Of a stretch of DNA of 64,000 bases, positions 1 through 46,198 are shown piece by piece. A model generated the notes under the pieces. The model saw only the letters and a list, made by a program, of their open reading frames with translations, was not told the origin of the DNA and did not search any database. Source of the stretch: a virus. The stretch covers positions 1 to 64,000 of IMG/VR virus record IMGVR_UViG_3300015371_000004; one strand, 5' to 3'. Within the stretch, counting starts at the first letter, position 1, and each line of letters starts with the position of its first letter. The position numbers and the translations under genes were made by a program.

Positions 1-3000
1 GCTGACCGTTGGGGGCGTCGTGTCGCCACCTCCGCCGCCTCCGGCCTTGGCAAAGACCGTGATTACTCCCTCGTACGGGATGGTCACGCTCACCGGCTGC
101 CCAGCCGTCACGGTCACGTCGGCAGCATTGACGGGGGCGGACGCTCCATTTTTGGGCGTATGGAAGACGCCGTAGGTGCCTGCCGAGAGTCCGCTCACCG
201 TGAACGTTGTGGCCGAGTCCACTTTGACAGCGACCACCTGCTTACCGTCTGCGTTGCGGAAAGCCAGCGGGTCGAGGCCCGCCCCTCCCTGCGCGGCGAT
301 CCGCACCGCGCCCGCTCGAACATACTTGGTGTACTGGCGCACGAGGGGCGCGTTGGGGCAGAGCGCGGCGGCCCCGTTGAGCCACGCGGCAATCGGCCCC
401 CACGCGCACGAGGCGCCCGCGACCGGCGGCCCCATGTGCCACGAGCTGGCGCGCGCGGCCGTGAGGTCGTCGATGAGCATCAGGTAGTTCGCTCCGTCCG
501 ACGTCTGGCCCGATCCCCAATACTCTCCTTGGCTGGTGCGCTTGTTCATCGAGGCGGTCTTGCTGCCGATCGCCTGAAGGTCCGCCAGTGTGCCACCGTA
601 CCGGTGGTACACGAATTCATCTGGCAGAACGCCGCCTGAAGCCGAGGCCATCGCATCCCAACACGCCGGACCATTCGACGGATTGGCCGTAGACGGCGCG
701 AGGAAGGCCGGGGTGAATCCGGCCGCCGCAAGCCGCGACTTTGCCGCCGCAAGCGCTGGGCCGAGCTGCTGGCAGGTCCACGACGTATTCTCGGGCTCGT
801 TCAGGATCTCGACGGCGTCCGGCACGAACCCATACTTCGATTGCATGTGCTGGAAGACCGCGAGCCAAAACTCCCCGTACTCGGCCGGGCTGTCGCGATG
901 TTCAAATGCGGAGTCGCCGTGGTCGACGTACTCCGCGTTGACGTAGAACGTCTCGCCCTTGGCGGCGGCCTTCGCGCGCATCGGCACGACGAGCTTGTCG
1001 ATCTCGATGTCGAGGTTGGACCAGTTGAATCCGGCTGCGTTGATCACGTTCGGGTCAGCGTTGTCATTGACGATCGTGTAGCCCTTGCCCGTCGATCCCT
1101 CGATGCCCGCCTGCACAGAGAGGCGGGCCCGGTTGAAGCCGAGGTCGGTCACGCTCAGGTTCAGCATCGCGTCGACCTGCGCCGACGTCAGGCCGGAATA
1201 GTCCGTCGTGCTGGCCAGCACGGCCACTTCCCACTGGCCCGCGGCCTGCAGCGTCTGGCCCGCGTTGACCGTGACGCTTGCCTGCGTGGGCGGCGGAGTC
1301 ACGCTGGAGACCTTGTCCGAGAACTTCGCGCGCGTGGTGGCATTGGCCGGGGCCGTCAGCGTGTTGAAGACTTCGACGTCGTCCGACGGGACACCCTGAT
1401 AGTCCTCAACGATCACGCGCACGGGGCCCGAGGTCGGCAGCAAGGCTCCGGTGAACGCCTCATGGACCCCAGACTGCGCGCAGTGAATGTTCCGCTGCGA
1501 CCGCACCGTGATCGACGGGATCATGACGTCCGTCGAGGTGTTGCCCGCCTGCATGTATTCGAGGTCTGTCCCGTTGTTGCAGAACGAGGAGTCCCGCACG
1601 ATGTGTTCGCGCGGCGTCGTCTCGGTGCCGGGGAACGGGTCAGCGATGGCCCACGGCCACCGCATCCCCACCCGCATGTTCTGCACGTTCGCGTTCTCGA
1701 CGATGATCCCCATCTGTGAGTAATCGCCGAAGTTGAAGCAGGTCGAGTAGTCCTCGGACGGCGGCATGCTCTGCGGGTCGTTTCGGCAGACCCACTTCCG
1801 GTACACGATGTCCTTCTGCGCGTAGTTATAGGTACCGAGCCACACGTTCGCGGCCAAGAACCCATCGAAGACGCCGGGCCCGGTGTCCCAGCCGACCTCA
1901 CCCATGCGCGAGCCCCAGCACTCGTTCCGTGCGAACTCTTTGATCGGGGTCGTGCGGTTGCTGAAATACATGAAGCAGGAGATCAGGCTGCCGACCACAG
2001 CGTTATCGCGCCAGTAGTCGTTGGTCGTGTCCCCCCAGAGGCCCACGCCCGCCGTCCCGCGGCAGATTGGAGGGCTGTCAAAGCTCCGGCAGCGATCCCC
2101 TCGGTTGCCATCCCCTCGCGTGTTGATCACGAGCAGACGACTGAAGACGTTGTCTGCCGTCATCATCTCCGTGCCCACACCCCATCCGTTGTTGTCGACG
2201 AAAATGTCGTCGTCGATCAGGTTGCCGTTCGTCTCATGGATCGAGCACCCCCACTTGGGAGAGCTGTTGACAAAATTCCCGACGAACTCGATATGGCCGG
2301 TGCCCTTGTGGATGTGGCAGGCATACTTGCCCGGCATCTCGGTGGAGCTGGCATCGTTCGGCGTCCGCCCCAAGTTCAGGAAGGCCGTGCCGAATACCCG
2401 CCCAGTGGCCGCGCCCGTGAAGACCGTATGGCCACGCGTCCCGTTCGGATTCTCCGACTCGATGATGATTGACCGCGTGACATAGCCAATCCACGGGTAC
2501 GCCTTTACGGTGCCGTCAAAATTGCGTGCGCCGCGGTGCTCGATCGTCAGCGGCGGCGTGAACGTGATGGACGTCGGTGTCAATGAGGCGATGGCCACGT
2601 ACTGCGTCACGCGTGGCGCGTTCTCATCCACCCAGAGATGCCGCTCGTCTCCGAAGACCACCTGTCCTCCGACCGCCATCCCAGCCGTGGACGTGACCTG
2701 CACCGTGGTGGCGCCCGCCAGCGCGTCAGCCGTCAGCCGCACCCGCGTCGCCGTCGTCTCGCCTTCCAGCCCGATACTGCCCATCACGACGAGGCCCGTG
2801 CTCCACTGGTCCACGTCGACCGGCGGCACGTCACGGACCACCCAGCGAATATTGCGACCGGGTGTCGTCCCGGTTTCCAGTCGGCCTCCGGGGAGGACCT
2901 CGATGGAGATCGCGCGCAGCTGCAGGCCATCGGCGAACCGCAACGTGCCGGACACCTGAATGCAGTCCTTCGTGACCGTTCCGCTGAGCGTGACAATCTG

Positions 3001-3126
3001 CCCAGCGGGGACGTTGTCAGGCGAGGTCGGACAGAAAAACGAGATGTTGTTCGGGAGCTGGGGCGTCCACGCCAGAAACGTGACCGGCGAGAGCGCAAAA
3101 AGGAGCGTGAGGAGTACGCGACGCAT
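1..3126 (-). CDS. G8 domain / beta-helix / glycoside hydrolase fusion (C-terminus cut by window edge)
   Basis: 1042 codons are open from an ATG at 3126 to the left edge with no stop. A signal-like hydrophobic start (MRRVLLTLLFALSPVTFLAW) precedes a glycine-patterned G8-like domain (about residues 35-95). A right-handed beta-helix-like region with a CHIHKG motif follows (about 170-430), in the order seen in CEMIP/TMEM2-type proteins. The C-terminal part (about 650-900) looks like a clan-A TIM barrel: N-E-P with acid/base candidate E777 and nucleophile candidate E868 in QGEYWG. A small beta domain and a Gly-rich linker come last. Likely role: polysaccharide depolymerase on the virion or secreted. 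The G8 and hydrolase calls are by eye; the substrate is unknown. Confidence 0.7.
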   Translation of the reverse strand, partial: MRRVLLTLLFALSPVTFLAWTPQLPNNISFFCPTSPDNVPAGQIVTLSGTVTKDCIQVSGTLRFADGLQLRAISIEVLPGGRLETGTTPGRNIRWVVRDVPPVDVDQWSTGLVVMGSIGLEGETTATRVRLTADALAGATTVQVTSTAGMAVGGQVVFGDERHLWVDENAPRVTQYVAIASLTPTSITFTPPLTIEHRGARNFDGTVKAYPWIGYVTRSIIIESENPNGTRGHTVFTGAATGRVFGTAFLNLGRTPNDASSTEMPGKYACHIHKGTGHIEFVGNFVNSSPKWGCSIHETNGNLIDDDIFVDNNGWGVGTEMMTADNVFSRLLVINTRGDGNRGDRCRSFDSPPICRGTAGVGLWGDTTNDYWRDNAVVGSLISCFMYFSNRTTPIKEFARNECWGSRMGEVGWDTGPGVFDGFLAANVWLGTYNYAQKDIVYRKWVCRNDPQSMPPSEDYSTCFNFGDYSQMGIIVENANVQNMRVGMRWPWAIADPFPGTETTPREHIVRDSSFCNNGTDLEYMQAGNTSTDVMIPSITVRSQRNIHCAQSGVHEAFTGALLPTSGPVRVIVEDYQGVPSDDVEVFNTLTAPANATTRAKFSDKVSSVTPPPTQASVTVNAGQTLQAAGQWEVAVLASTTDYSGLTSAQVDAMLNLSVTDLGFNRARLSVQAGIEGSTGKGYTIVNDNADPNVINAAGFNWSNLDIEIDKLVVPMRAKAAAKGETFYVNAEYVDHGDSAFEHRDSPAEYGEFWLAVFQHMQSKYGFVPDAVEILNEPENTSWTCQQLGPALAAAKSRLAAAGFTPAFLAPSTANPSNGPACWDAMASASGGVLPDEFVYHRYGGTLADLQAIGSKTASMNKRTSQGEYWGSGQTSDGANYLMLIDDLTAARASSWHMGPPVAGASCAWGPIAAWLNGAAALCPNAPLVRQYTKYVRAGAVRIAAQGGAGLDPLAFRNADGKQVVAVKVDSATTFTVSGLSAGTYGVFHTPKNGASAPVNAADVTVTAGQPVSVTIPYEGVITVFAKAGGGGGGDTTPPTVS

Positions 3127-3177: not shown

Positions 3178-3453
3178 CTACGGCGAGAGGCCGACCGAGC
3201 GCAGGAAGCGCTCCCGAGCCTCAATCTTTTCCATGGTCTTTTCCCATGGCGTGCACGTCCCTTTGTCCGCGCACGGCCCGCAGATCAGCTGGCCACAACA
3301 GCCGCACCAGCCTCCGCAAGCGGAGGCTGGTGCGTTGGGTTTCACGAAGACCACAAACTGGCAGTGATGGCACGTAAACGTGTCGCACTCGGCTTGGAGC
3401 CCTTGCGGTGCATCCGGATCATGGATGACCGCGTACCCCTGCGGCTTCCGCAC
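3178..3453 (-). CDS. small zinc-binding phage protein
   Basis: 91 aa from a GTG; no ATG fits. It carries paired cysteines (CHHC, then CGGWCGCCG and CGPC) that look like a treble-clef or zinc-ribbon fold, followed by a helical C-terminus. The run 'HDPDAPQGLQ...DTFTCHHC...VFVKP' is a pattern I recall in conserved phage proteins of unknown role. It lies 9 bp after the gene above it, in the tail/late part of the genome. Confidence 0.7.
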   Translation of the reverse strand: MRKPQGYAVIHDPDAPQGLQAECDTFTCHHCQFVVFVKPNAPASACGGWCGCCGQLICGPCADKGTCTPWEKTMEKIEARERFLRSVGLSP

Positions 3454-3462
3454 GGCCGTCTG

Positions 3463-3969
3463 TTACGCGCAATCGACGTGCATCGTGCCCGAGAAGTCGG
3501 TCGTGGTCGCCGACTGCACGACGCCGGTAATGCCGTTGTTCGTGGTCGCTGGCCACACCAGCTCGCCACCGGGCGCCGCCACCCACCGATAGGTCGCGCG
3601 CATGTTGAGCGAGAGCCGCATCAGCAGCACGCCGAACGTCGGGTCCGCGGTGTAGGTGTCCGACGCGTCAAAAACCGACGCGGCTTCCGCCGGATCCAGC
3701 GGCGACGGGGTGACCGCCGCAGCGGTGCCTGCGGTAGAGCTGCGAATCAGTTCGTGGTCGAAGACGTTGTCGGCCGGGGTCGTGATCGACCCGACCATGT
3801 AGTCATAGACACGGCCGCGCTGCGCCGTCGTGCCGTCGGCCCGGGCGTTCACGATGGACCGCACCGAGGCCGTGCCCTTGTTGCCGGGAACGGAGTACCG
3901 CGCCAGCTGACGCGTCAGATTGTTGGCCACCAGAGCAGCGAATCTGGCGATGTGACCAATGTGCACCAT
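3463..3969 (-). CDS. putative virion-associated protein
   Basis: 168 aa. ATG at 3969 is chosen because GGAGG lies about 9 nt upstream; a longer frame upstream lacks a ribosome site. The protein is mixed alpha/beta with the segments VFDHELIRSS and TFGVLLMRLSLNMRATYRW. I recall similar sequences among phage structural neighbourhoods, but no function is established. No catalytic motif is visible. Confidence 0.65.
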   Translation of the reverse strand: MVHIGHIARFAALVANNLTRQLARYSVPGNKGTASVRSIVNARADGTTAQRGRVYDYMVGSITTPADNVFDHELIRSSTAGTAAAVTPSPLDPAEAASVFDASDTYTADPTFGVLLMRLSLNMRATYRWVAAPGGELVWPATTNNGITGVVQSATTTDFSGTMHVDCA

Positions 3970-4029
3970 GTCGTTTGACCTCCAGCCGCCGTAGGGCGAG
4001 CTACGCCTAAGCTGGAGCACAAACGCAGG

Positions 4030-4202: not shown

Positions 4203-5540
4203 CTATTTGCGCATCACGAGGATATTGCCGCCCTTGCCGTCCCCGGTGTAGCCGCCCTGCTCGACGACGTGGTAGCCGAGGCGAGGTTCGAGCGTCCAGT
4301 CGGGCCCGATGTCGATCGGGCCACCCACCATGGTCCCGTCCGGCATCTTCATCCAGTAGTTCCGGCCCGCGCCGCGGGGGTCCTCGTACTGCACCTGCGC
4401 GTCGATGTACCGGTCCCAATGGACGATCGGGCACTCGCCGTCGATCTGGGGGTAGATCCGCGTGTGCCCTTGGCCGGGGACCTCACCGTACTGCGGGGGG
4501 TCGTCCGGGCTCAGGACCGCCGCACGCCTGAACGCCCCATCGGCCGCGGCGTTCAGCACGATGAGCGGCGAGTTCCAGATGACGCTCACGGCTTCGAGGC
4601 AGTCGTAGCCCGGCTCACCGGGCTTCGGCCAGACGCAGTTCTGTAGGTCGGTCTGGTGGTGAGACGCCGACGGCAGCGACTTGAACCCACCGTGGACGAT
4701 CAAGCCCATCCCGAGGTTCAGGCAGTGAAACGCGCAGTCGGCCCACTGACGTGGGGTCGTCCCCTCGGCAATCCGGGTCGGCTCGCCCGGCATGGCGGGA
4801 CGGTGCGCGGCTGGGAAGGGGGTCAGTCCGCCCTTCTGCGTCTCGTAGGAGAGCTTCGCGGACTCCCACGGCCACTCAGGATTGTCCCGTGACGGATGGA
4901 ACGTCGCCCAGTCCATCCACGTGCCGACTTCCTCCGGATTTGGGCTCGACGGCGATCCGGTATCCCACGTCGCGCGCGTCATCATCAAACGAGCAAAATC
5001 GGCCGACGAGAATCGGCTGGTCAGCGAGCCGTTGCCGGTGTTGTCTCCATCAAGCGTTTCATTCTCGATCTCACCGAAGACGTTACCAGCATCGTCGGCG
5101 ACCTCGGTCAGCAGGCGAACATGCTCGTCCTGCTCTCCGTGCGACAAGCAGTTCGGGCCGCCGGACCGCTGATTGCAGAAGTAGACCGAGAAATAGTAGT
5201 AGCTGAACTTGTCGCGCAGCCGAATGCAGAGCTGGTGGACCGCGTCGTACCCGCGCTGGCGGTAGCAGTTCCAGCCGGTGTTGTCCCACATCCCGGTGAA
5301 GTCGCGATTGCAGTTGAACCTCATGGCTGCCGCGGGGCCAATGAAGTCGTCCACGCGGCCCCACTCGCCCTTAAAGGCCAGCTCCGCAAGGCGAAACCCC
5401 GTGTGGCCCTTGATCTTCTGGATGGCACCGTCCGGCGTGACAAAGTTGAGATTCGACCGTCGGAGGCGTCCGGGCCACGGGCCACCCCCGCCGCCTCCAC
5501 CGCCGGACCCGCCCATCAGGCGGGCTTGCAGAAAGGTCAT
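4203..5540 (-). CDS. putative glycosidase-like TIM-barrel tail protein
   Basis: 445 aa. A poly-Gly linker (residues 10-19) follows a short N-terminal stub, as in phage proteins that hang an enzyme on the tail. The body has the alternating strand/helix rhythm of a (beta/alpha)8 barrel. FGEIENETLD could be the acid/base region of a cellulase-like clan-A hydrolase, but I cannot assign the nucleophile. It starts 2 bp after the stop of the 630-aa gene, so the two are co-translated. It fits with the left-edge gene as a set of surface polysaccharide-acting proteins. Fold and activity are inferred. Confidence 0.55.
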   Translation of the reverse strand: MTFLQARLMGGSGGGGGGGGPWPGRLRRSNLNFVTPDGAIQKIKGHTGFRLAELAFKGEWGRVDDFIGPAAAMRFNCNRDFTGMWDNTGWNCYRQRGYDAVHQLCIRLRDKFSYYYFSVYFCNQRSGGPNCLSHGEQDEHVRLLTEVADDAGNVFGEIENETLDGDNTGNGSLTSRFSSADFARLMMTRATWDTGSPSSPNPEEVGTWMDWATFHPSRDNPEWPWESAKLSYETQKGGLTPFPAAHRPAMPGEPTRIAEGTTPRQWADCAFHCLNLGMGLIVHGGFKSLPSASHHQTDLQNCVWPKPGEPGYDCLEAVSVIWNSPLIVLNAAADGAFRRAAVLSPDDPPQYGEVPGQGHTRIYPQIDGECPIVHWDRYIDAQVQYEDPRGAGRNYWMKMPDGTMVGGPIDIGPDWTLEPRLGYHVVEQGGYTGDGKGGNILVMRK

Positions 5541-5542
5541 GG

Positions 5543-7435
5543 CTACTTCTTTACGAAAACGAAGATGTTCTTGATGGAGCCGTCATCGAACCGGTTGAAG
5601 ACCAGTACCGGTTGCCACGTCGCGGGCTGCTCGGCAAAGAAAAACTGCTCCCACCGGTCGTTGGTCCCCGCTGGCCGCGTGCCCAGCGTCGCGCCCGAAC
5701 CCTCTTGCTCGCTGAGGACCACATTGGCCTCGACAAACAGGATCGTCCGCGACCCATTGGCGTTTTGGGCCGACGCTTCCACCTCTTCGTACCCGCCCTG
5801 CGGCGGCGGGTCGATGTGCTTGGAGTAGACCTCGGTCTTTTTCTTCGGGTCGACGCCAAGGAAGTCCCCCTCCAGCACACGATGCTGCGGCCCCAGCTCC
5901 CGGAGAAATCCGCGAACGGTTCCGTTACTCATGAGTCGAGCCCTTTCAGAAGGTTGCGGCGTGGGCGTGCCGCCATTTCCGCCTCCACCACCATTCCCGC
6001 CGCCCTCCGCGATGAAGATGGGCAGCCCCGTGGACGCCGACGCGAAGGCAGTATACGCCTGATTCCAGCTCGGCATTTTCGCCAGCCCGCTCCGCATGGC
6101 GTCAAAGGCCAGCATCCCGTTGGTCAGCCGGATCAGCTCGTCGTAGACCGGCCAGTACGGCTTGAGCTGCTCTTCGGTGAACGCAAAGGGCGGGTTCCCG
6201 GGGAACCATTTGGCGACGATGATCTTCTGTCGGTCCTTGAGCCGGTCAATGGCCGCGCGCATCCGTGCCCGGAACGTCTCAGGCAGTTCGTTGAACTTTG
6301 GGTAGGCCTGAATGAGGGGCACGTCGCCCCGGCCGTCGTGGTTCTCGCCATTCTTTTCGTCGTAGAGAAACCACGGTCGTGGACCGGTCAGTGGGAACGT
6401 CGAGTGGGCGGTATCGTGCCACGTGCCCATGAGCTTGTCGGCTGGGACGTTCAGCGCACCGAGTCCGGCGATGACCGGACGCTTCACCTTCATCAGGTTG
6501 TAGTCGCTGGCCGCGTAGCCGGGGTAGGGCCCGAAGAGCACCTCGCAGTTTCCGGCAAACTCTCCGTACTGGTACTGCGTGCTGGAGGCGTAGATCGGCC
6601 CGATCGCCTTCACGCCGAGTGGGGCGATCAAGGTGGTCAGATCGATTTTGTCTTCAGGGTTCAGGTCCCAGTCCGCGCTGGCCCAGACCGCTGCCAGCTC
6701 ACTCTGATCGTTCGACCATGTGACCCGAACGAAACCGTTGCCAAGGAGCCCGCAGTCCGGGACGACGAGGCCGGTCGGGCTGAAGTCCTTGGCGACAAGC
6801 CAGCCCTCGGTCTCGTCGTGCCAGCGGAGGGTGAGGTACCCGCTCGACCGTTCAAGGAGCAGCGCGCGCCCCGCCACGTCGAGGGGGACCGCGTAGTCCA
6901 CGTAGGTGGGCCGGGGAGCTATGGGGACGGCGCCCCCGCCGTACGGGCGCCGCAGGTGCCAACCTTCGGCCACCGTTTGATGGAGCAGCCAGCCCTGCCG
7001 AAAGCGGACGTTCCGGAGAGCAATTGCGTCGGTCCCCAGCGAGGACGTCGGGATGGTGAGCGCGCTGGTCCCGCTCAGGAGGATGATGTCGCTGCCCGTG
7101 GAGTACCGGGTTAGCGCGGCAATGCCGGTCGTCGGATCCACGTCGGCTGGAACGAGATCCGGCTCGCGCCAGCCGGTGTTCGAGTAGCCGACCCCCTTGA
7201 AGAAGGCGAACCAGCGCCCGGCGTTGCCTCTCAGCCAGTTGGCGCCGTCAGCCGACTCTTGGATCCACGGGCCGTTTGGGCGATGGAAGCTCCAGAGGGT
7301 CGCGCCCCATTGGGCGACGACTGTCTGATCATCCTTCCAGCCAAAGGCAGAGCCCCCGGCGCCCCCGACCGTGGGCAGCACTTTCCCGTTGACGTGGTAG
7401 TTACCGACGGCGTCGCCAAGGGCGTTGAGCCACAC
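5543..7435 (-). CDS. putative receptor-binding / beta-propeller-like tail protein
   Basis: 630 aa from GTG at 7435; the in-frame codon five bases upstream is a stop, so this start is near forced. The first 250 residues are Trp/Gly-rich repeats (WFAFFKGVG, WLLHQTVAEGW, LRWHDETEGW) typical of beta-propellers. The middle (about 260-480) looks like an enzyme-type alpha/beta domain with GTWHDTAHS and LYDEKNGENHDGRGD. A Gly-rich linker near 485-500 leads to a beta-rich C-terminal domain. Its place with other large surface proteins suggests host-surface recognition. No family is assigned with certainty. Confidence 0.55.
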   Translation of the reverse strand: MWLNALGDAVGNYHVNGKVLPTVGGAGGSAFGWKDDQTVVAQWGATLWSFHRPNGPWIQESADGANWLRGNAGRWFAFFKGVGYSNTGWREPDLVPADVDPTTGIAALTRYSTGSDIILLSGTSALTIPTSSLGTDAIALRNVRFRQGWLLHQTVAEGWHLRRPYGGGAVPIAPRPTYVDYAVPLDVAGRALLLERSSGYLTLRWHDETEGWLVAKDFSPTGLVVPDCGLLGNGFVRVTWSNDQSELAAVWASADWDLNPEDKIDLTTLIAPLGVKAIGPIYASSTQYQYGEFAGNCEVLFGPYPGYAASDYNLMKVKRPVIAGLGALNVPADKLMGTWHDTAHSTFPLTGPRPWFLYDEKNGENHDGRGDVPLIQAYPKFNELPETFRARMRAAIDRLKDRQKIIVAKWFPGNPPFAFTEEQLKPYWPVYDELIRLTNGMLAFDAMRSGLAKMPSWNQAYTAFASASTGLPIFIAEGGGNGGGGGNGGTPTPQPSERARLMSNGTVRGFLRELGPQHRVLEGDFLGVDPKKKTEVYSKHIDPPPQGGYEEVEASAQNANGSRTILFVEANVVLSEQEGSGATLGTRPAGTNDRWEQFFFAEQPATWQPVLVFNRFDDGSIKNIFVFVKK

Positions 7436-20077: not shown

Positions 20078-20317
20078 CTACCCTCCCGGGTTCGTTCCGG
20101 CCTGCGAGGCAATGGCGCGAGACAGCGCCTCCCGGACCGTCGCGTTGGCCAGCACCCGTTCGAGAATCTGGTCGCGCTGCTCCGGCGTCAGCTCAACGTG
20201 GGCACCAATCAGCGCTTTGATGCCCCGGACCGCGTCAAACCCGAGCCCAATGAGGATACGGGTAAGGGAGCTGTAGTCGAGCACGAGCTGCTCGATCTTC
20301 TTGGGGTCCAGCGGCAT
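20078..20317 (-). CDS. 79-aa helical hypothetical protein
   Basis: ATG 20317 with GAGGAGGAG about 7 nt upstream. Wholly helical (KKIEQLVLDYSSLTRILIGL...). Overlaps the end of the lipoprotein gene by 83 bp in another frame, which is unusual; both frames have coding character. Confidence 0.6.
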   Translation of the reverse strand: MPLDPKKIEQLVLDYSSLTRILIGLGFDAVRGIKALIGAHVELTPEQRDQILERVLANATVREALSRAIASQAGTNPGG

Positions 20318-20828
20318 GGGTCTCTCCTCCTCGAATCGTGTCGATGATCTTCTGAATTTCGGCGATCGTGGTGTTGCCGAGCGAGAGCAGGTCCCGCTGC
20401 CCATCGGAGACCGCTAAGGTCCCGATGATCGCAACGACGGCCTGCGCTTGGCTCAAGAGGGCGTTCAGCTCAGGCGGCGCCGGTTGGCCTGCGGTCCACG
20501 CCTTGATGAGGATGGCGGCCTTCTTCTGAATCGCGAACGCGTCGGCGATCTTCGCGCTGAATTCCTTGTGCTTGTCGGTCGTGAGCTTGGTGGCGTCCGA
20601 GAGCGGACCCGCGCACGGCGTCGTCGGCGGCCAGCTGGTCGCGATAGGCGTCCCAGCCGCAACAATTTTGTTGTACTGGGCCTCGTTGCAGATCCGCAGT
20701 TCAGTGTCCTGCAAGGTCGTGAGGCGCTTGTCGACAAAGTCGATGGAGAGGATCGCGCGGTCCTTTGGTGGCAGATGCGTTCCACACGACACGAGCAGGA
20801 GAATCAGAGTCAGGCTGAGACGCTTCAT
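20235..20828 (-). CDS. putative phage lipoprotein
   Basis: 197 aa from ATG 20828. Lys/Arg start, hydrophobic core LTLILLLVSC with a lipobox Cys at about residue 15, then a helical periplasmic domain. A lipoprotein beside holin and lysins suggests an outer-membrane (o-spanin-like) or superinfection role, but it is longer than usual o-spanins and has no inner-membrane spanin partner that I can identify. Its C-terminal 27 codons overlap the next gene. Confidence 0.55.
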   Translation of the reverse strand: MKRLSLTLILLLVSCGTHLPPKDRAILSIDFVDKRLTTLQDTELRICNEAQYNKIVAAGTPIATSWPPTTPCAGPLSDATKLTTDKHKEFSAKIADAFAIQKKAAILIKAWTAGQPAPPELNALLSQAQAVVAIIGTLAVSDGQRDLLSLGNTTIAEIQKIIDTIRGGETHAAGPQEDRAARARLQLPYPYPHWARV

Positions 20829-20838
20829 GGGCACCCTC

Positions 20839-21171
20839 TCAAGGTATCCGAATCGGAGCCACATTATGGACCGGACACGCACAGACGTCGATCACATACG
20901 GTAGCACGTGGTCCTTCGACAACCAGATTTCGAGCGTGAACCGGCCCGGAGGAATGTTGAAGAGATAGTACATCCCGTCCCCGCCCGTATACGTCGGGCT
21001 CGACGGCCCGTACTGGGGGTGGTTGAGCCGGACCATAATGCCCTGCGCCGGGTACTGCTGCCCGTTTGGCGCTACCCGGAAGAGCAAGCCGCGCACGGTG
21101 GCCCCGCCACGCGCCTCAGTCGAGACCACGAGGGCGGCGAGGACGAGCGCGATGAGGAGCGCGCGCTTCAA
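20839..21171 (-). CDS. secreted carboxypeptidase-regulatory-like beta protein
   Basis: 110 aa. Signal peptide MKRALLIALVLAALVVSTEA with cleavage expected near residue 20. The rest reads as a transthyretin/CNA-B-like beta-sandwich (VRGLLFRVAPNGQQYPAQGI, then GMYYLFNIPPGRFTLEIW). Probably exported to the periplasm. Role unknown. Confidence 0.6.
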   Translation of the reverse strand: MKRALLIALVLAALVVSTEARGGATVRGLLFRVAPNGQQYPAQGIMVRLNHPQYGPSSPTYTGGDGMYYLFNIPPGRFTLEIWLSKDHVLPYVIDVCACPVHNVAPIRIP

Positions 21172-21809
21172 CTGCCTCCCCCAGCCGCTGCGGTTGCCGT
21201 TGGGGCCGCGGCCGTTGCCGCCGGTACGGCCACCGCGACTTCTGCCCGAGTCGGCACGTACGCCGTCCCCTGATGCAGCGAGGTCATCGTGATGGGCTGC
21301 TTAATGATAATCCGTCTGGCCGCGTGGTCATACTCGGCCACGATGGGCGTCGATCCGTACGACCGATCGGGCCCGAGGGGGACCGTCATCCCCCGGTAGT
21401 CCCGCAGGTCGAGCTGCAGATCAGGGAACTGCAGGCGACCGTCGGCCTCGGTGACCGGGATCTCCCAGCTGAACATCCCCTGATTGAGCACGCTGAGCCG
21501 GGGTGGAATCACCCGGACGTAGATGTCGTTGATATTGGGCTCGGGATCCGACGCGGGCTTCTGGAAGGCCAGCGCACCGGTCACCGTCCACGTGTGAAAG
21601 TGGGCATACTCGGCGGGCCGGTAGTGAAACATCGTCACCATGACGACGAGGTAGCCCGCAAACGCGCCTCCAAACTTGAACGAGTTCCCCTGCCACGTCC
21701 CGCTGGCGTCGCCGGTCGACGGCAGGTACTTGAAGAGCAGAAACGCCGGGACAATCGGCAAGAGCACCGCCGACCAGTTGAAGATGAGGGCGAGGATAGT
21801 CTCGTTCAC
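21168..21809 (-). CDS. membrane-anchored protein with beta-rich domain
   Basis: 213 aa from GTG 21809 (GTGA overlap with the holin stop). Two N-terminal membrane segments (about residues 5-25 and 41-60) are followed by an exposed domain with IYVRVIPPRLSVLNQGMFSW and an Ala/Pro-rich tail. It may be a lysis accessory or an envelope-modifying protein. No family recognised. Confidence 0.5.
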   Translation of the reverse strand: MNETILALIFNWSAVLLPIVPAFLLFKYLPSTGDASGTWQGNSFKFGGAFAGYLVVMVTMFHYRPAEYAHFHTWTVTGALAFQKPASDPEPNINDIYVRVIPPRLSVLNQGMFSWEIPVTEADGRLQFPDLQLDLRDYRGMTVPLGPDRSYGSTPIVAEYDHAARRIIIKQPITMTSLHQGTAYVPTRAEVAVAVPAATAAAPTATAAAGGGS

Positions 21810-22111
21810 GGGGTCAGGAGCGGAAGCGTCGTGTTGGGCGTGGCGACCGGCGGCGCTTTCCCAGCCGCCACCTGCGCCTTCACGTCCGTGATCGTCGTCG
21901 GCTCGCTGGCGGCGGCCGTCAGCAGGTTCAGCCGGTCCTTGTACTTGACCCAGAGCTGCAGCAGGAACGAGGCAATCAGGCCCGCCACCCCGACGATCAG
22001 GAGTTCGTTCTGTTCCGGAGACGCGATGCCCTTGCTGACGAGCCACGCCGAGACGCCCGTCAGGGCATGGCGGAGCAGCCCGGTCAGATAGGACTTGAGC
22101 AGATCAGACAT
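21806..22111 (-). CDS. putative holin
   Basis: 101 aa. Short amphipathic N-terminus (MSDLLKSYLTGLLRHALTGV), two hydrophobic helices (about 15-28 and 38-55), then a charged, Ala/Pro-rich tail. Size, topology and position directly after the endolysin fit a class II holin. The pattern LLRHALTG is one I recall in other phage holins. Confidence 0.6.
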   Translation of the reverse strand: MSDLLKSYLTGLLRHALTGVSAWLVSKGIASPEQNELLIVGVAGLIASFLLQLWVKYKDRLNLLTAAASEPTTITDVKAQVAAGKAPPVATPNTTLPLLTP

Positions 22112-22126
22112 AAGACCTCGGGGGTT

Positions 22127-22687
22127 TTAGGGGTTGACGAGCCTCACCCTTGTGGCCTGCACAAGTCGAGCGGCCGTCTCGGCCACCTCCCGGCACTTCT
22201 GCCACGGAAACTGCCGGTCGTACCCAGACGGGTCGATCTTCCTCCCCGGGGCCACGTGCTCATGGCCGACCACCCGGTCGCCGTCGATCCTGTAGGTCCA
22301 CACGAGGCTTTCCACGAGGGCGTACAAACTGGCCAGCTGGCGGTCGGTGTACCCACTATCGTGGGTCGCAACCAGCTCGACGCCCAGCGAGAACTCGTCC
22401 ACGTGCGGCTCCTTCGTGGGGTCCCCATCGCGTGCCTTGGGCTTCATGGCCGACCGGCCTGCGTGCCACGCGACGTTGTCGTCGTGGACGATCTGGGCGA
22501 CCCGTCCGTCCCGCCCAACCAAGTAGTGCACCGAGTAATGCGAGGCAGGCTGGAGCATCCAGCGGAGCGCCGTCTCGAAGTACATCGACCCGGTGTAGTG
22601 GAGCACCAGCGCCGAGATCGGCTTCTTCCGCGGGCCGAAGTTCGGGCTCGGGTAGAACTCGTACGGCGGTCGACTCAGGTCGGTCAC
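22127..22687 (-). CDS. endolysin, N-acetylmuramoyl-L-alanine amidase
   Basis: 186 aa. Amidase_2/PGRP fold: LVLHYTGS with zinc ligand H30, SVHYLVGRDG, VAWHAGRS, SLGVELV, and GHEHVAPGRKIDP giving the second and third ligands (H142 or H144 and D152). Hydrolyses the amide bond between muramic acid and the peptide. No signal peptide, so release depends on the adjacent holin. A second lysin candidate lies immediately upstream. Confidence 0.88.
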   Translation of the reverse strand: MTDLSRPPYEFYPSPNFGPRKKPISALVLHYTGSMYFETALRWMLQPASHYSVHYLVGRDGRVAQIVHDDNVAWHAGRSAMKPKARDGDPTKEPHVDEFSLGVELVATHDSGYTDRQLASLYALVESLVWTYRIDGDRVVGHEHVAPGRKIDPSGYDRQFPWQKCREVAETAARLVQATRVRLVNP

Positions 22688-22689
22688 AT

Positions 22690-23139
22690 CTAGGACAGCC
22701 TGCGCACGCCGAGAACATCGCTCACCGGAAAACTGGACAGGGTCACCGCGTCTCCCTGATTGCCCCCAACGGCCAGTACCCGGTCTCGCTGCGCATTGAA
22801 CCCGGCGAAAAACGCGACGTGGCCCTGCGCATCCAAGACCTCGGGGCCGGGCTGATTCCCTCCGCCGCGTTTGAACACGACGACGTCGAACCCGATTTCG
22901 GCCTCTCCCAGATCAATCGGCTTCCCGATGCCCAGCCACGACCGCGCCGACAGAGACTTCGAGCGCGGCAGCCGCCAGAGCCATGCGATCCAGTTCACGA
23001 ACGCGGAGCACCATGGGACCTCGTCGTGCCCCGGCCACGTCTGGTCCAGCCGCAGCATCGCCATGACGATCGGATTGTCAGCGAGGCCCGGCGCCTCCTT
23101 CACGCCAATGAACCGTTGGGCCTGATCGAAGGGCGTCAT
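22690..23139 (-). CDS. CHAP/TIGR02594-like peptidoglycan hydrolase
   Basis: 149 aa. PWCSAFVNW supplies the catalytic Cys (C44) and GHVAFF the His (H107); VLAVGGNQGDAV is typical of the same family. Likely a cysteine peptidase/amidase acting on peptidoglycan peptides. Placed 2 bp from the amidase, so the phage has two lysins of different chemistry. Confidence 0.75.
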   Translation of the reverse strand: MTPFDQAQRFIGVKEAPGLADNPIVMAMLRLDQTWPGHDEVPWCSAFVNWIAWLWRLPRSKSLSARSWLGIGKPIDLGEAEIGFDVVVFKRGGGNQPGPEVLDAQGHVAFFAGFNAQRDRVLAVGGNQGDAVTLSSFPVSDVLGVRRLS

Positions 23140-23540
23140 TTGTGGCGCCGTCTCTTCCGAATCTCGTCCGTCCGCAGATTCGCGGCTCTCGCCCCCTTAA
23201 TCTGGCCTTGCGCCAGCCCTTCGGCGTGCGCGACGAGACGCGCATTTCTGACCATCTCGTCCAAGCGCGAATTGACCGACAAATGGGTCTCCTGCGCTTT
23301 CAGGTAGGCCAAGACCGAAGTCAGGGTTGTCCCCGTAAATCCCACAACGAAGATCAGGGGCAGCGCGTTGCCCCCGTCAGGGTTGGCCATCAGCACCCCC
23401 GCAATGGCCAGCAGACCCGCCGCGATCGTCGTAACCACGGCGACGAGGTACGTCTTGGCCATGGACTGCAGTGGTGCAGGCCGCTGTAGGGGGATCAGGA
23501 TCCCGGGAAGGCGTACGTCTTCCTCAGGTGAAAGCGGCAT
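23136..23540 (-). CDS. membrane protein, lysis block
   Basis: 134 aa from ATG 23540. Two membrane segments (about residues 27-47 and 53-73), then a basic cytoplasmic tail rich in Arg/Lys. ATGA overlap with the CHAP-like gene. May be an additional holin or pinholin; not assigned. Confidence 0.5.
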   Translation of the reverse strand: MPLSPEEDVRLPGILIPLQRPAPLQSMAKTYLVAVVTTIAAGLLAIAGVLMANPDGGNALPLIFVVGFTGTTLTSVLAYLKAQETHLSVNSRLDEMVRNARLVAHAEGLAQGQIKGARAANLRTDEIRKRRRHK

Positions 23541-23886
23541 CGTCTTCCTCCTGCTTTTTCTTGGCCACTTGGAGGTCAGCATGAAACCGGTCGGTGAACA
23601 TCTTGAAGACTTTCCAATCGCCGATGATCGCAATAGCCAGCACCAGCAGGTACCGCAACAGGATGTTCTCAAAGCTGGTCAGCGAGAAGGCCACCACACA
23701 GAACAAAATCGCGCACAGCCCGGCCGACTGCCTGAATTTCGATTTCCATGCCGCGGCCAGCTCATCGTCGAGCACGCCGAGCTGGCGGGCCTCCTTCCAG
23801 TCCAGCCACAGGCGGACCAGATACGCGAGCGCGCCGAGCGCGCCGGGCCCGGCCACTAAAAACAAGCTCCACCTAGCTGCGCTCAC
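23524..23886 (-). CDS. membrane protein, lysis block
   Basis: 120 aa from GTG 23886 with AGGAG 5 nt upstream. Three hydrophobic stretches (SLFLVAGPGALGALAYLV, LCAILFCVVAFSL and LLRYLLVLAIAIIG) and a charged acidic tail. Function unknown. Confidence 0.5.
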   Translation of the reverse strand: MSAARWSLFLVAGPGALGALAYLVRLWLDWKEARQLGVLDDELAAAWKSKFRQSAGLCAILFCVVAFSLTSFENILLRYLLVLAIAIIGDWKVFKMFTDRFHADLQVAKKKQEEDDAAFT

Positions 23887-24109
23887 GGTGTCTCCTGAAG
23901 GCGGCATCGGCCACCCTAGACGCGACTTCGAACTCGTCAATGTAGCGCTGGCGGGCCATCTCAGACCGCTCCCGTTCCCGCGCTTCCCGGGCTGTTCCGG
24001 CTCGCTGCTTCCTCAGCTCCGCCTGCGCGCTGGCCGTTTTCTCCTCGTAGACGCGCACCGGTCCACTGATCTGCCGGTCTCTAGTGAAAATACGGTCCCA
24101 GAAGCTCAC
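23873..24109 (-). CDS. 78-aa charged coiled-coil protein
   Basis: Amphipathic N-terminus (MSFWDRIFTRD) and long Arg/Glu helix (AELRKQRAGTAREARERER). No membrane segment. Overlaps neighbours by 4 and 14 bp. Confidence 0.5.
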   Translation of the reverse strand: MSFWDRIFTRDRQISGPVRVYEEKTASAQAELRKQRAGTAREARERERSEMARQRYIDEFEVASRVADAAFRRHRERS

Positions 24110-24390
24110 GGTCCGACCTTTTTCGCCACCTCGACGACCCCTTCAACAGCCGTCTTCATCCCGGTCACGAGGTTCATGTAGGCCGACTTCCACGCCAGCT
24201 TGTCCGCGCGCTCCTCTTCGATCTGCTCGACCCGGACCTCGTCGAGTTTGGCCGCCGCGTCCACGATGGCCTTGATCTCACGGTCCACTTGGGTCCGCCA
24301 GAGGAGGAGGCCCTTGGAACTCAGGAAGACGGCCAACAGCAGCAGCGTGGTGACTGTGCCGCCCGCTGCAAGGAAGTCCGTCCAGTTCAT
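24106..24390 (-). CDS. membrane-anchored helical protein
   Basis: 94 aa. One N-terminal membrane helix (GTVTTLLLLAVFLSSKGLLL) followed by a charged coiled coil. This anchor-plus-coil layout recalls an i-spanin, though the coil is short and its pairing with the lipoprotein 3 kb away is untested. Confidence 0.45.
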   Translation of the reverse strand: MNWTDFLAAGGTVTTLLLLAVFLSSKGLLLWRTQVDREIKAIVDAAAKLDEVRVEQIEEERADKLAWKSAYMNLVTGMKTAVEGVVEVAKKVGP

Positions 24391-24509
24391 TTCGGTTTCT
24401 TTCTGTTCCTATAGTCGCGCCACAAGTTGAACGCGATGTACCCGACTCCAAGAGCGGTCCAGAACGAGTAGTACTTCCAGTCTTTGATAATCGGGCCAAG
24501 GTCCTCCAT
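24387..24509 (-). CDS. 40-aa single-pass membrane peptide
   Basis: Begins at ATG 24509, which overlaps the tail-fibre stop, and ends with a 4-bp overlap to the next gene. MEDLGPIIKDWKYYSFWTAL, then GVGYIAFNLW, then a basic end (RNRKKPK): one membrane segment with positive-inside character. Confidence 0.5.
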   Translation of the reverse strand: MEDLGPIIKDWKYYSFWTALGVGYIAFNLWRDYRNRKKPK

Positions 24510-25477
24510 CAGTTCACCCGCCATGCGATGACGTAGCTGTTCGTGTTCAGCGTCGTCGATCCGCTCGCGTTATTCTGCGCCCACCGGAGTTTCACGTTCC
24601 CGGCGTTCGTACTGTTCACGATCAGCACGTGCATCTGAATCGACGTGCCCACCGTGTCGTCAATGCCGAACGATCCGATGCCGGTATCGGTGATGTCCGT
24701 GGTGGAGAACATCGAGACCGTCGTGGGGATAGAGGTCAGACCAGTCTGATGGCCCGACATCTGCTGCGTCCCAGCCGCGCTCGTCGGCGCATTGACCGTG
24801 ACCTTGATGTCGCCTGCCTCGGTTCCGGATGAGACGGCCAAGTAGAAATCAAAGGCCCACGTCTCGCTGGCCCCGATCGCTATCGTCAGGTGGTCATCGT
24901 CTTGCAGCGCCGAACTCGCTGAGACCGTTTCGGTGGCGGTCTTGCGCGCGAACTTCACATCGAGCAGATTCGTGAAGCTCGCGGTGCTGATCATGTCGAC
25001 GGTTGCGCCGTTCTGGCGGCACTTGAACTTCGTCGTGGACGAGTTGTACCAGCAGTCTCCGTTGGAGAGCGACGAGGGGTCGCCCGCCTGCGAGCCAAAG
25101 TTCAGACCCGCATTCGTGCCGTCCGGATTGAACGTCTGCCGCACCCCATCGGGAAAGGCGATGACATTCGAGTCGTCAATCGTGATACCGCTCTGCTGGA
25201 TACCCTTTGTGCCGCCATCGCCGCGGACGATCGCGTTGTCGGCAATGTTCGCGGCTGCCGTCACGTCACCACTTCCCGCCCCGGTAATCGGGCCGGTCCA
25301 CGTATTCACCGTTCCGCAGAAATAAAATCCGGCCGACGCCCCGGTCTTAACGTAGACACCCCCAACATTGCAGTTTGTGGGGAGCGTACCGCTAGAGGAG
25401 ATGATCGTCGATTGGTACACGCTCCAGATTCCAACAAAGGCCAGAGCAAAATTAAGAGGAAGAAGAAGTTTCTTCAT
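24509..25477 (-). CDS. tail fibre-like protein with N-terminal hydrophobic leader
   Basis: 322 aa. Leader MKKLLLPLNFALAFVGIW, then fibre-type beta repeats (AAANIADNAIVRGDGGTKGI; GIGSFGIDDTVGTS), many Thr/Ser/Asn and few charges. Follows the baseplate hub/fibre gene with ATGA overlap. A signal-like leader on a fibre is odd; it might be the coat-anchoring segment. Probably binds the host surface. Confidence 0.55.
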   Translation of the reverse strand: MKKLLLPLNFALAFVGIWSVYQSTIISSSGTLPTNCNVGGVYVKTGASAGFYFCGTVNTWTGPITGAGSGDVTAAANIADNAIVRGDGGTKGIQQSGITIDDSNVIAFPDGVRQTFNPDGTNAGLNFGSQAGDPSSLSNGDCWYNSSTTKFKCRQNGATVDMISTASFTNLLDVKFARKTATETVSASSALQDDDHLTIAIGASETWAFDFYLAVSSGTEAGDIKVTVNAPTSAAGTQQMSGHQTGLTSIPTTVSMFSTTDITDTGIGSFGIDDTVGTSIQMHVLIVNSTNAGNVKLRWAQNNASGSTTLNTNSYVIAWRVN

Positions 25478-28400: not shown

Positions 28401-28659
28401 CAGTCTTGATAGGGACGTTGCCGATGTCGCCGAGGCCCGTCTCGTACGGCTCCACGATCAGGCCCCCGAAGATCCGGACGCCGTTCTCGGTTGCGATCAC
28501 TTCAGCGTCAGCCGGAGGGCGGTACGTCCCATCCTCCGACCGGATGGTCCCGGTCAGCTTCGCTGTGCCATTCAGCGATTCGACAATGCTGAAGCTGCCC
28601 TCGTCGAAGTAGACCGGGACCCCAGAGACCGCCGCGGTGTAGACCGGGCGGCTAGGCAT
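25474..28659 (-). CDS. baseplate hub / tail-associated fibre fusion
   Basis: 1061 aa from ATG 28659. The first about 420 residues read as a gp27/Tal-like hub (VPVYFDEGSFSIVESLNG, RIFGGLIVEPYE, then a long beta/alpha part). From about residue 530 on there are fibre-type repeats (e.g. AVQFHNPSGFFDGDSQFTWD) and a collagen-like Gly/Pro content. Likely joins the tail tip to the adhesion apparatus. It sits next to a glycosyltransferase and before the fibre protein. Confidence 0.65.
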   Translation of the reverse strand: MPSRPVYTAAVSGVPVYFDEGSFSIVESLNGTAKLTGTIRSEDGTYRPPADAEVIATENGVRIFGGLIVEPYETGLGDIGNVPIKTAIDATDFSTYAALANVDATFPEQSLKAMLQQLVPFIGNGVTLDPAQATGPTIKGFIGDNRTALDLLNVLAAEAQWIWEIDYNKVLRMYPPGANPSPFNIAMGDGFVEGDIQVWRPGGAARPNRVVLVAGGTPKLIEHPNQNFIGDGTTNLWTLDFPIAGWLPGSVNGVPTGGAVGYGYVVVGGISESIGAPTAGGVIWHYDDATHTITRTLGPVGSGVLIHVPYQYQVPFTVIAEDAADIAIRGVRAVRITADTTYDLATAQTLANNYLAQYQAATNPKRVRYRTKQLGLRIGMHQTINIPIRGLNGVFTVVNIETTVTADNSQGYDVQRIITLVEGLLFRGSPTTNVGSTPLAAGGASGCPCCPAPPQYSAQYENNGICGGAYHILYGPLFWSEPDAFLGEVKTSGWVFVAGNAGPILHNGLPYTRDSIGPSSFKGLTDPNRLEMGMIGGLDFSFDLFGENITGAIPTDGSRTGITGSLGSILMNAPADIFFTAGTGIGSHSDIPGGLRFTGKGKNGTPGDTGPTPQATWDLNYEPAGITLLPGLVGESFNKISGLTLLDGLVGLYSRVTSLPYTINTTAISNSFEFLTFFVDAGTGTINLPDTAAIAPSNLRVFPLTSRGRLFFIKNVSAGVVTVQPFSGNIDGHANITLNPMASVLLQRFDAVIHGDSWHILSSTGSGSFGGSGTTVVPGGPVKAVQFHNPSGFFDGDSQFTWDTVKGQLELTHIQSYSLLKLVNPFATNYGPIAMDIGGNSNNIYFGGELSGGTYLAGAPSPGYIWHQGGPSPLTGSSFIGMGFEQETDEVPGSAITYAKGVGFDIAVHAPSGWLAGEGGYAEIYSYGYGSSGRGAGLHIYRNTDGPSGAPGYLGLQDRSAVGSGLGVGKFWYLWPDISGNPHWGTEPPQADGTPPDTGGIILGAAGTGGTPPFVGLTADPGAPSEDTWWTVRSGVTPNATISIKYRYNGVTHTLTTFGPV

Positions 28660-29731
28660 AGGCAGGCTCCGCAACGAGTTGATGCAAGGCCTTGACCCAG
28701 ACCTGCCCGTGGGCCGGGCCCCAATGTCGCCAGACGTACGCCTTGGCCGCCGCGCCCATCGCGCGCCGCCGGTGGGCATCGGTCACGAGGGACGTCAGCG
28801 CCGCATACCACTCGGCGCCGGTTCGACAGAGCAGCCCGGTCTCCCCATGCGTGATGACCCGGTAGGGCTCGCACGCCGAAGCAATAGTCGGGACGCCCAG
28901 CGCCGAGTATTCGAGATACTTCAGCGGGCTCTTGCTGCGGTTGAATGCCGTGTTGAGGAGCGGCGCCAGCCCGATGTCGAAGTCGAGATACTTGAGGGTG
29001 CGCGGGTACTGCGCAAACTCGACTCCGGCCATGATCTGAACCCGGGATGGCGACAGGGGCTTGAGCAGCTGCGGGATACACCCAAAAAAGCGCAGCACCA
29101 CCTGCGGCTGCTGCTTCAGCAGCTCAAGGATCGCGGGGACGGCCACACAGAAGTCACTTTCATGCGTCGGCGATCCCTGCCAGCCGATCACCACCTGCCC
29201 GGGCTCGCGCGCGGCCGTGGTCGTGACCGCCCGCTGCACGTCCTCGCCCCACAGCTCGTGACGCAGATGGTTGGGAGCCACGATGACCCGGCCCGGGTCG
29301 ACGGCCGCGTGCTCCACCACGCAGGCCTTCAGGGTCTCGGTCGACACGAGAATCAGGTCGCTCGCTTGGATCAGCCGGGTGGAGCGCCGCTTCGTCTCGG
29401 TCTGCCCCCACACCGAAAACGCCGGATTAGCGTAGGCAATATTGAAGAGGTCGTCGTCCACTTCGTACACGGTCTTGACGCCGTGGTGCCGACAGGCCGC
29501 CATCCAGAGTTCCGCGACTGGCAGCGCTGGGCGCTGAAACACGACCGCCTTGTAGGTTGGCAGCTGGCTCATCAGCTGCCGGTGGGCTTCGGGATGGTCG
29601 ACCACCAACTGCTGGAGCAGGAAGGTCAGGTCATAGCCCGCATTCTTGAGCGCAAACGAGGGCGTGTACATCCGGTAGGCCCCACACCCCGACACATCGG
29701 CCGCAAAGAGAAGCAGACGTCCCCGCGTCAC
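28652..29731 (-). CDS. GT4-type glycosyltransferase in the tail cluster
   Basis: 359 aa. GT-B fold: N-terminal Rossmann half, EVDDDLFNI, then a C-terminal half with VIGWQGSPTHESDF, DIGLAPLLNTAFNRSKSPLK, LEYSALGVPTIAS and HGETGLL. These are family-4 sugar-nucleotide binding features (EPYRVITHGETG region as the E-x7-E area). No membrane segment. Overlaps the tape measure by 4 bp and the hub by 8 bp. A second paralogue lies at 46.2-47.3 kb. Glycosylation of virion proteins is the likely role; substrate unknown. Confidence 0.8.
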   Translation of the reverse strand: MTRGRLLLFAADVSGCGAYRMYTPSFALKNAGYDLTFLLQQLVVDHPEAHRQLMSQLPTYKAVVFQRPALPVAELWMAACRHHGVKTVYEVDDDLFNIAYANPAFSVWGQTETKRRSTRLIQASDLILVSTETLKACVVEHAAVDPGRVIVAPNHLRHELWGEDVQRAVTTTAAREPGQVVIGWQGSPTHESDFCVAVPAILELLKQQPQVVLRFFGCIPQLLKPLSPSRVQIMAGVEFAQYPRTLKYLDFDIGLAPLLNTAFNRSKSPLKYLEYSALGVPTIASACEPYRVITHGETGLLCRTGAEWYAALTSLVTDAHRRRAMGAAAKAYVWRHWGPAHGQVWVKALHQLVAEPAYA

Positions 29732-45910: not shown

Positions 45911-46198
45911 CTATTTGCCCTTAAAGGATTTATCTCCAAGGCTCGACGTACAGACGGCGTACGCATTCACCCCGCGCCCGCTGGCCTTGACCTTGTCGGT
46001 ACACCGCTTCCATTTGTCCGTGTGGATGTCCTTGTGGCCCGCCTTGGTCATAACCTCGCGCGTGAGAGGCCAGTTCGACGGGGTCGTGGCCACCCGAGCC
46101 TGAATCACGCGCACGGGGATCCCCCGCAGGTGGACCGTCTCGCCCGGGGCAAGGTCACGCTCTTCCAGCGAGTCTGACTGAGGAATCGGCCGAATCAT
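45911..46198 (-). CDS. head-associated small protein with conserved C-terminal tail
   Basis: 95 aa from ATG 46198 (MIRPIPQ). The C-terminus WKRCTDKVKASGRGVNAYAV then C-T-S-S-L-G matches a tail I recall at the ends of phage head-morphogenesis proteins (C-x-D-x-V-x-x-x-G ... A-Y-A-x-C-T). Overlaps the GT gene by 44 bp. Confidence 0.6.
   Translation of the reverse strand: MIRPIPQSDSLEERDLAPGETVHLRGIPVRVIQARVATTPSNWPLTREVMTKAGHKDIHTDKWKRCTDKVKASGRGVNAYAVCTSSLGDKSFKGK

What the first reader, a model, noticed from the sequence alone, without database searches (positions are those of the whole stretch)
1..3126. G8 + beta-helix + clan-A hydrolase fusion in a phage
The domain order resembles vertebrate CEMIP/TMEM2-type proteins (G8 then beta-helix) with an added hydrolase bearing N-E-P (E777) and Q-G-E-Y (E868). 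With a signal-like leader this may be a secreted or virion depolymerase. I know of few phage G8 proteins.
Basis: partly seen in the sequence, partly recalled or inferred. Interest (0 to 1): 0.6.

Follow-up and report, generated by a model that had tools for sequence, protein, structure and literature searches.

The report
Phage CEMIP-like beta-helix fused to GH30
A bacterial virus carries a large, apparently exported protein that joins a sugar-binding fold related to human hyaluronan-degrading proteins (CEMIP/TMEM2) to a second sugar-cutting enzyme (GH30 type); related proteins occur in about twenty other viral contigs and are probably used to cut the slime or capsule around host bacteria.

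Summary
The ORF is on the minus strand (3126 to 1) of a complete or nearly complete phage record of 115,949 bp. It runs off the record start and continues in frame at the record's other end, giving about 1,419 aa: hydrophobic leader, G8 plus CEMIP-type right-handed beta-helix, GH30-like barrel plus beta-sandwich, Gly linker, Ig-like repeats. G8/CEMIP membership is firm by homology: bacterial G8 proteins, 21 further viral contigs (E to 1e-39), and human TMEM2 (8C6I) by profile (5.5e-15). The hydrolase is GH30-like: Pfam, HHalign with shuffles, and Foldseek on a weak model all point there, and E777 sits in the conserved NEP motif; E868 is the only nearby nucleophile candidate, register uncertain. 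Every other G8 protein examined lacks the GH30 module. The gene lies in a cassette syntenic with another viral contig, downstream of a head protein there. Best reading: an exported or virion-borne depolymerase for host surface polysaccharide; activity is untested. R218, G232, H233, Y268, H271, H273, H297 and E320 are shared from phage to TMEM2: a testable candidate active site for a family whose catalysis is disputed. Phage G8 proteins are not rare, but PHROGs has no model for them.

The parts
1..3126 (-). G8/CEMIP beta-helix + GH30-like fusion gene, 1042 aa in the window; continues at the other end of the record (L004 16949-15816, minus) to about 1419 aa
3134..3138 (-). AGGAG ribosome-binding site before ATG 3126
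   Evidence: read from sequence
3070..3126 (-). signal-like leader MRRVLLTLLFALSPVTFLA (residues 1-19)
   Evidence: sequence; similar leaders in L112, L117-L121, L124, L128, L132; no signal-peptide predictor was available
2863..3012 (-). G8 domain (residues 39-88 matched), the first rungs of the beta-helix
   Evidence: Pfam PF10162 15.9 bits, below cut-off; homology to proteins with full G8 matches
1327..2859 (-). CEMIP/TMEM2-type right-handed parallel beta-helix (residues about 90-600)
   Evidence: AF2 model with pLDDT mostly 80-97 over residues 40-520
2167..2475 (-). conserved core R218, G232-H233, Y268-x2-H271-x-H273, H297, E320: candidate active site
   Evidence: invariant in 7 viral and at least 97% (36-37 of 37) of bacterial G8 proteins, and in TMEM2
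37..1290 (-). GH30-like (beta/alpha)8 barrel plus beta-sandwich (residues about 613-1030)
796..798 (-). E777, acid/base candidate in N-E-P at the end of beta4
   Evidence: aligned with the acid/base of four GH30 proteins; beta4 ends at domain residue 169, just before E777 = domain residue 171
523..525 (-). E868, nucleophile candidate near beta7
   Evidence: only Glu near the GH30 T-E position; alignment register uncertain by about 3 residues
154..312 (-). Glyco_hydro_30C beta-sandwich match
   Evidence: PF17189
25..42 (-). poly-Gly linker, followed by the start of the first Ig-like (Big_7) repeat at 1-24
   Evidence: sequence; Big_7 on the joined C-terminus
3178..3453 (-). 91-aa Cys-rich upstream gene, syntenic with L132 5214-5594
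   Evidence: E 6e-16
3463..4020 (-). 185-aa upstream gene, syntenic with L132 4593-5042
   Evidence: 44% identity, E 6e-38

Best explanation
It is a phage-encoded surface-polysaccharide depolymerase with two sugar-acting modules on one chain. The G8/CEMIP-type beta-helix binds, and probably cleaves, an acidic or complex exopolysaccharide of the host along a groove lined by H233, H271, H273, H297 and E320. The GH30-like module (E777 acid/base, E868 candidate nucleophile) hydrolyses a beta-glycosidic bond by the retaining clan-A mechanism. The Gly-rich linker and Ig-like repeats space the enzymes and attach them to a sugar or a surface. The leader would send it through Sec; it then acts outside the cell after export or lysis, or as part of the virion. 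Shown here: domain homology, motif conservation, genomic setting. Inferred: catalysis by either module, substrate, location.
For: Homology of the beta-helix to bacterial G8 proteins (5e-14), to viral ones (down to 3e-39) and, through the family profile, to TMEM2 (5.5e-15). The core polar residues are intact in the phage protein. The GH30 call comes from several methods: PF17189, PDB phmmer top hit 1nof (0.03), HHalign against four GH30 proteins (48.2 bits; best of 200 shuffles 28.0; reversed 14.2; beta-helix control 15.4), and Foldseek, where the only 3 hits under 1e-3 among 350,542 chains are all GH30. Conserved GH30 positions N776-E777, H841-x-Y843 and W896 agree with the subsite residues described in PMC13431644. 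Five of five plasmid-borne bacterial G8 genes sit beside glycosyltransferase, sulfotransferase or O-antigen ligase genes. Viral relatives sit near head, adaptor, scaffold or tail genes, and the gene block is syntenic with L132.
Against: No activity data. The hydrolase model has low confidence (pLDDT 43), so E777 and E868 could not be placed in space. The beta7 register is uncertain. TMEM2's own hyaluronidase activity is disputed (PMC10206443 against PMC10474455), so the beta-helix may only bind. GT neighbours by strict phmmer were found in only 24 of 80 genome loci (a lower bound). The best fold matches of the model are tailspike depolymerases with low TM-scores, which support only the general fold.
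Confidence: 0.7

Rival explanations
1. It is a virion receptor-binding protein: the beta-helix and Ig repeats bind host polysaccharide and only the GH30 module, or neither module, is catalytic.
For: Some TMEM2 work finds no catalysis (PMC10206443). Ig-like domains and parallel beta-helices are common in phage fibres. The gene sits in a structural cassette.
Against: The polar core H233/H271/H273/H297/E320 is invariant across highly divergent phage, bacterial and human members, which is more than a scaffold would need. A hydrophobic leader is unusual for a tail fibre.
Confidence: 0.2
2. It is a soluble enzyme exported during infection and not part of the particle; it clears matrix around the lysed cell so that progeny can spread.
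For: Signal-like leader with a good RBS here and on most viral relatives; no recognised particle-binding or trimerisation domain.
Against: The gene sits among structural genes; a Sec leader alone would leave it in the periplasm of a Gram-negative host until lysis.
Confidence: 0.35
3. It is a host (bacterial) gene joined to the phage by assembly error, not a phage gene.
For: Many relatives with the same G8 + beta-helix architecture are bacterial.
Against: Same strand, GC (0.650 against 0.644) and GC3 pattern as the phage genes; three-gene block syntenic with another viral contig; 21 viral contigs carry relatives.
Confidence: 0.03

Closest known systems
Vertebrate TMEM2 / CEMIP (G8 + CEMIP beta-helix, Pfam PF10162 + PF24606; PDB 8C6I)
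   Same: G8 as the first rungs of a right-handed beta-helix; conserved R218, GH, YxxHxH, H, E core
   Different: No lectin-like (GG) insertions recognised; microbial-only R231, R254, W292; fused to GH30 and Ig repeats; the host is a bacterium and hyaluronan is not implied
Bacterial G8 proteins of Rhodobacterales and cyanobacteria (e.g. WP_198319968, WP_260008602)
   Same: G8 + CEMIP beta-helix; EPS gene neighbourhoods for the plasmid-borne ones
   Different: C-termini of those scanned are RTX, LamG or cadherin-like, one with PA14; none of the fetched ones has the GH30 module
G8 proteins of other viral contigs (L010, L011/L012, L101-L104, L112, L118-L133)
   Same: Same beta-helix, often a leader, phage structural setting where tested
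   Different: No GH30 module in any
GH30 enzymes, group of XynA/XynC (1nof, 3kl0) and AcXbh30A (7n6o)
   Same: NEP acid/base, HxY, beta8 Trp, C-terminal beta-sandwich, similar domain order
   Different: Very divergent; no subfamily can be assigned; sits in the middle of a phage beta-helix protein
Phage beta-helix tailspike depolymerases (Klebsiella K1 lyase 7w1c, LKA1 gp49 4ru4)
   Same: Right-handed beta-helix acting on bacterial polysaccharide; top fold matches
   Different: No sequence relation found; from general knowledge these are homotrimers with particle-binding heads, and lack G8, a leader or a GH30 module

Membership tests
G8 / CEMIP beta-helix (PF10162, PF24606) | Match to the Pfam models above the curated cut-off in this protein | tested here: not met
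   G8 15.9 against 22.9 bits, CEMIP_beta-hel not listed. Viral relatives do pass, so I call it a divergent member by homology, not by the Pfam cut-off
G8 / CEMIP beta-helix (PF10162, PF24606) | Significant homology to accepted members over G8 and helix | tested here: met
   5e-14 to bacterial G8 proteins; 3e-39 to L101, which passes both Pfam cut-offs
G8 / CEMIP beta-helix (PF10162, PF24606) | Conserved polar core shared with TMEM2 | tested here: met
   R218, G232, H233, Y268, H271, H273, H297, E320
G8 / CEMIP beta-helix (PF10162, PF24606) | Right-handed parallel beta-helix fold | tested here: met
   AF2 model with pLDDT mostly 80-97 over residues 40-520, beta-helix top matches
G8 / CEMIP beta-helix (PF10162, PF24606) | Hyaluronan degradation | not testable with these tools
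   Disputed even for TMEM2 (PMC10206443, PMC10474455)
Glycoside hydrolase family 30 | Sequence-profile similarity to GH30 | tested here: met
   HHalign 48.2 bits, shuffles at most 28.0; PF17189 22.1 against 22 bits in the record-only search but 16.4 in the single-protein scan
Glycoside hydrolase family 30 | Acid/base Glu in N-E-P after beta4 | tested here: met
   N776-E777-P778 aligned in all five
Glycoside hydrolase family 30 | Nucleophile Glu after beta7 | tested here: inconclusive
   E868 is 91 residues on and nearby, but the register is uncertain
Glycoside hydrolase family 30 | (beta/alpha)8 barrel with appended beta-sandwich | tested here: inconclusive
   Low-confidence model, yet only GH30 among Foldseek hits under 1e-3
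Phage tailspike | N-terminal particle-binding domain and trimerisation domain | tested here: not met
   No such family match in Pfam or PHROGs; a leader is present instead
Phage tailspike | Presence in the virion | not testable with these tools
   Needs mass spectrometry

The most novel reading that the evidence does not exclude
Phages have a widespread, so far unnamed family of exported CEMIP-type beta-helix depolymerases that share one active site (H233, H271, H273, H297, E320) with human CEMIP/TMEM2. This member has in addition become a bifunctional enzyme by gaining a GH30 module.
Probability: 0.45. Interest if true: 0.75.

Novelty: new variant of a known kind. Interest (0 to 1): 0.55.

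Why it matters
Phage depolymerases are sought as tools against capsules and biofilms, and PHROGs has no model for this class. The class links phage enzymes to the human CEMIP/TMEM2 family, whose active site is described as an open question (PMC10206443). The residues kept from phage to human are a short list to mutate, and the smaller phage proteins may be easier to study than the vertebrate ones. The G8 + GH30 fusion is an architecture not seen in any other G8 protein examined here.

Tried and rejected
Single-sequence scans of viral contigs with exact 8-mers found nothing; alignment-based patterns were needed. tblastn with the whole protein or the hydrolase against annotated phages found nothing, nor did the hydrolase against plasmids. 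Hydrolase hits in 399 genomes were mostly chance (L094, L096), but L095 is by its sequence a real GH30. The tree of the beta-helix has very long phage branches and does not show their origin. The Foldseek matches of the two-domain model have low TM-scores and were used only for the general fold. GH30 matches in phage records are mostly short or unannotated records. A hit in Curvibacter phage PCA1 (UZZ64504.1) is a relative of the G8/first rungs only (HHalign 3.6e-14) and lacks the HxH core. L101's contig shows no phage hallmark tested here and may be bacterial. No RNA family or tRNA in the window. An alignment of the hydrolase with four GH30 proteins was too divergent to search viral contigs with.

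Full report
What is there. The finding is a minus-strand gene whose reading frame covers window 3126 to 1. The window begins at base 1 of the virus record, so the gene is cut. Joining the far end of the record (L004) to the window start keeps the frame open for 377 more residues, to a stop, with the same codon-position GC. The record therefore looks circular. There is no shared terminal repeat, and the split Ig repeat (DTTPPTVS | GVQFKLDG) is shorter than a usual Big_7 domain, so some tens of codons may be missing. The start codon has a good ribosome-binding site.

It is a phage. Portal, head protease, major-head-like protein, terminase-like protein, DnaB, PolA, helicase and endolysin families are present, but its portal is far from described phages.

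G8 and beta-helix. Pfam alone is sub-threshold. tblastn against plasmids finds proteins annotated G8 (5e-14), which pass the G8 and CEMIP_beta-hel cut-offs. An alignment of these found 80 loci in genomes, mainly Rhodobacterales and cyanobacteria, and viral contigs. Rescans with viral members widened the viral set to 21 distinct IMG/VR contigs, some of them near-identical pairs. The tested viral proteins pass the CEMIP_beta-hel cut-off. The window protein matches them at 1e-16 to 3e-39. A profile of 40 members finds TMEM2 8C6I in the PDB at 5.5e-15, with no other credible hit. AlphaFold gives a mostly confident helix for residues 40-520.

Conserved core. Aligning 7 viral and 37 bacterial proteins with the TMEM2 segment leaves R218, G232, H233, Y268, H271, H273, H297 and E320 shared by all groups (G232 in 97% of the bacterial ones); R231, R254 and W292 are invariant only in the microbial ones. 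The TMEM2 structure paper calls the active site an open question and finds no activity (PMC10206443), while PMC10474455 reports intrinsic activity.

Hydrolase. Independent lines agree on GH30: the GH30 C-terminal Pfam domain, 1nof as best PDB sequence hit, a real GH30 among genome hits, HHalign against four GH30 proteins well outside 200 shuffles and three control proteins, and Foldseek of a weak single-sequence model whose only hits under 1e-3 are GH30. N776-E777, H841-x-Y843 and W896 align with GH30 subsite residues (compare PMC13431644). E868 is the probable nucleophile but its register is not secure. No G8 protein in the fetched bacterial or viral loci has this module.

Setting. The bacterial G8 genes on plasmids lie beside glycosyltransferase, sulfotransferase and O-antigen ligase genes; in genome loci, strict matches to those neighbours occur in 24 of 80. 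Viral relatives lie near adaptor, scaffold, head, portal or tail-lysozyme genes. In L132 the block [185-aa gene][91-aa Cys-rich gene][G8 gene] has the same order as in the window, about 3.5 kb after a major-head-like gene, and a repeat protein related to the one downstream in this record follows. L132's G8 protein starts MRRVLIGVFVALFGASLSA, much like the window's MRRVLLTLLFALSPVTFLA, and lacks the GH30 part. So the window gene is best read as a phage-cassette G8 gene that gained GH30 and Ig modules.

Function. Putting these together, a depolymerase of the host's surface polysaccharide is most likely (0.7). Whether it sits on the particle or is secreted is open; the leader, shared by most viral relatives (judged by hydropathy only), favours export, and the cassette favours the particle. 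The closest named systems are CEMIP/TMEM2 (membership by homology), GH30 (membership likely, nucleophile inconclusive) and tailspike depolymerases (works like, not a member).

Noticed in passing
window 4203-5540 and 5543-7435 (minus): Two proteins just upstream with Gly-rich linkers and motifs that look by eye like TIM-barrel glycosidases (e.g. GEIENE, RIAEG); no Pfam, NCBIfam or PDB match.
   Followed up: partly
window 28652-29731 and 46155-47315 (minus): Two glycosyltransferases of the same family (phrog_7162) inside the structural gene region.
   Followed up: no
window 3303-3334: 14-bp inverted repeat inside the 91-aa Cys-rich gene.
   Followed up: no
L004 10881-13427 (minus); L132 9824-10429 and 11639-12280: Phage protein built of W-x-YPD repeats, 848 aa here and shorter in L132; no PHROGs or Pfam match.
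   Followed up: partly
window 24509-25477 (minus): Tail-fibre-like 322-aa protein that also starts with a signal-like leader (MKKLLLPLNFALAFVGIWSV).
   Followed up: no
window 20235-24390 (minus): Probable lysis region: amidase/endolysin 22127-22687, a lipoprotein-like leader at 20235-20882 and a small membrane protein at 24106-24390; hints at a Gram-negative host.
   Followed up: partly
ends of record G000 (window 1; L004 16949): The record ends join in frame without a terminal repeat; likely circular with a possible short gap.
   Followed up: partly
L105 305-3250 (Curvibacter phage PCA1, UZZ64504.1): A cultured phage has a G8-like start on a 981-aa protein next to its tail fibre gene; this phage infects only sessile cells (PMC9763317).
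   Followed up: partly
L101 5755-7521: G8 protein on a contig classed as viral whose N-terminus (FEQLERRQCLS) looks planctomycete-like and that has no phage hallmark found here; may be bacterial.
   Followed up: partly
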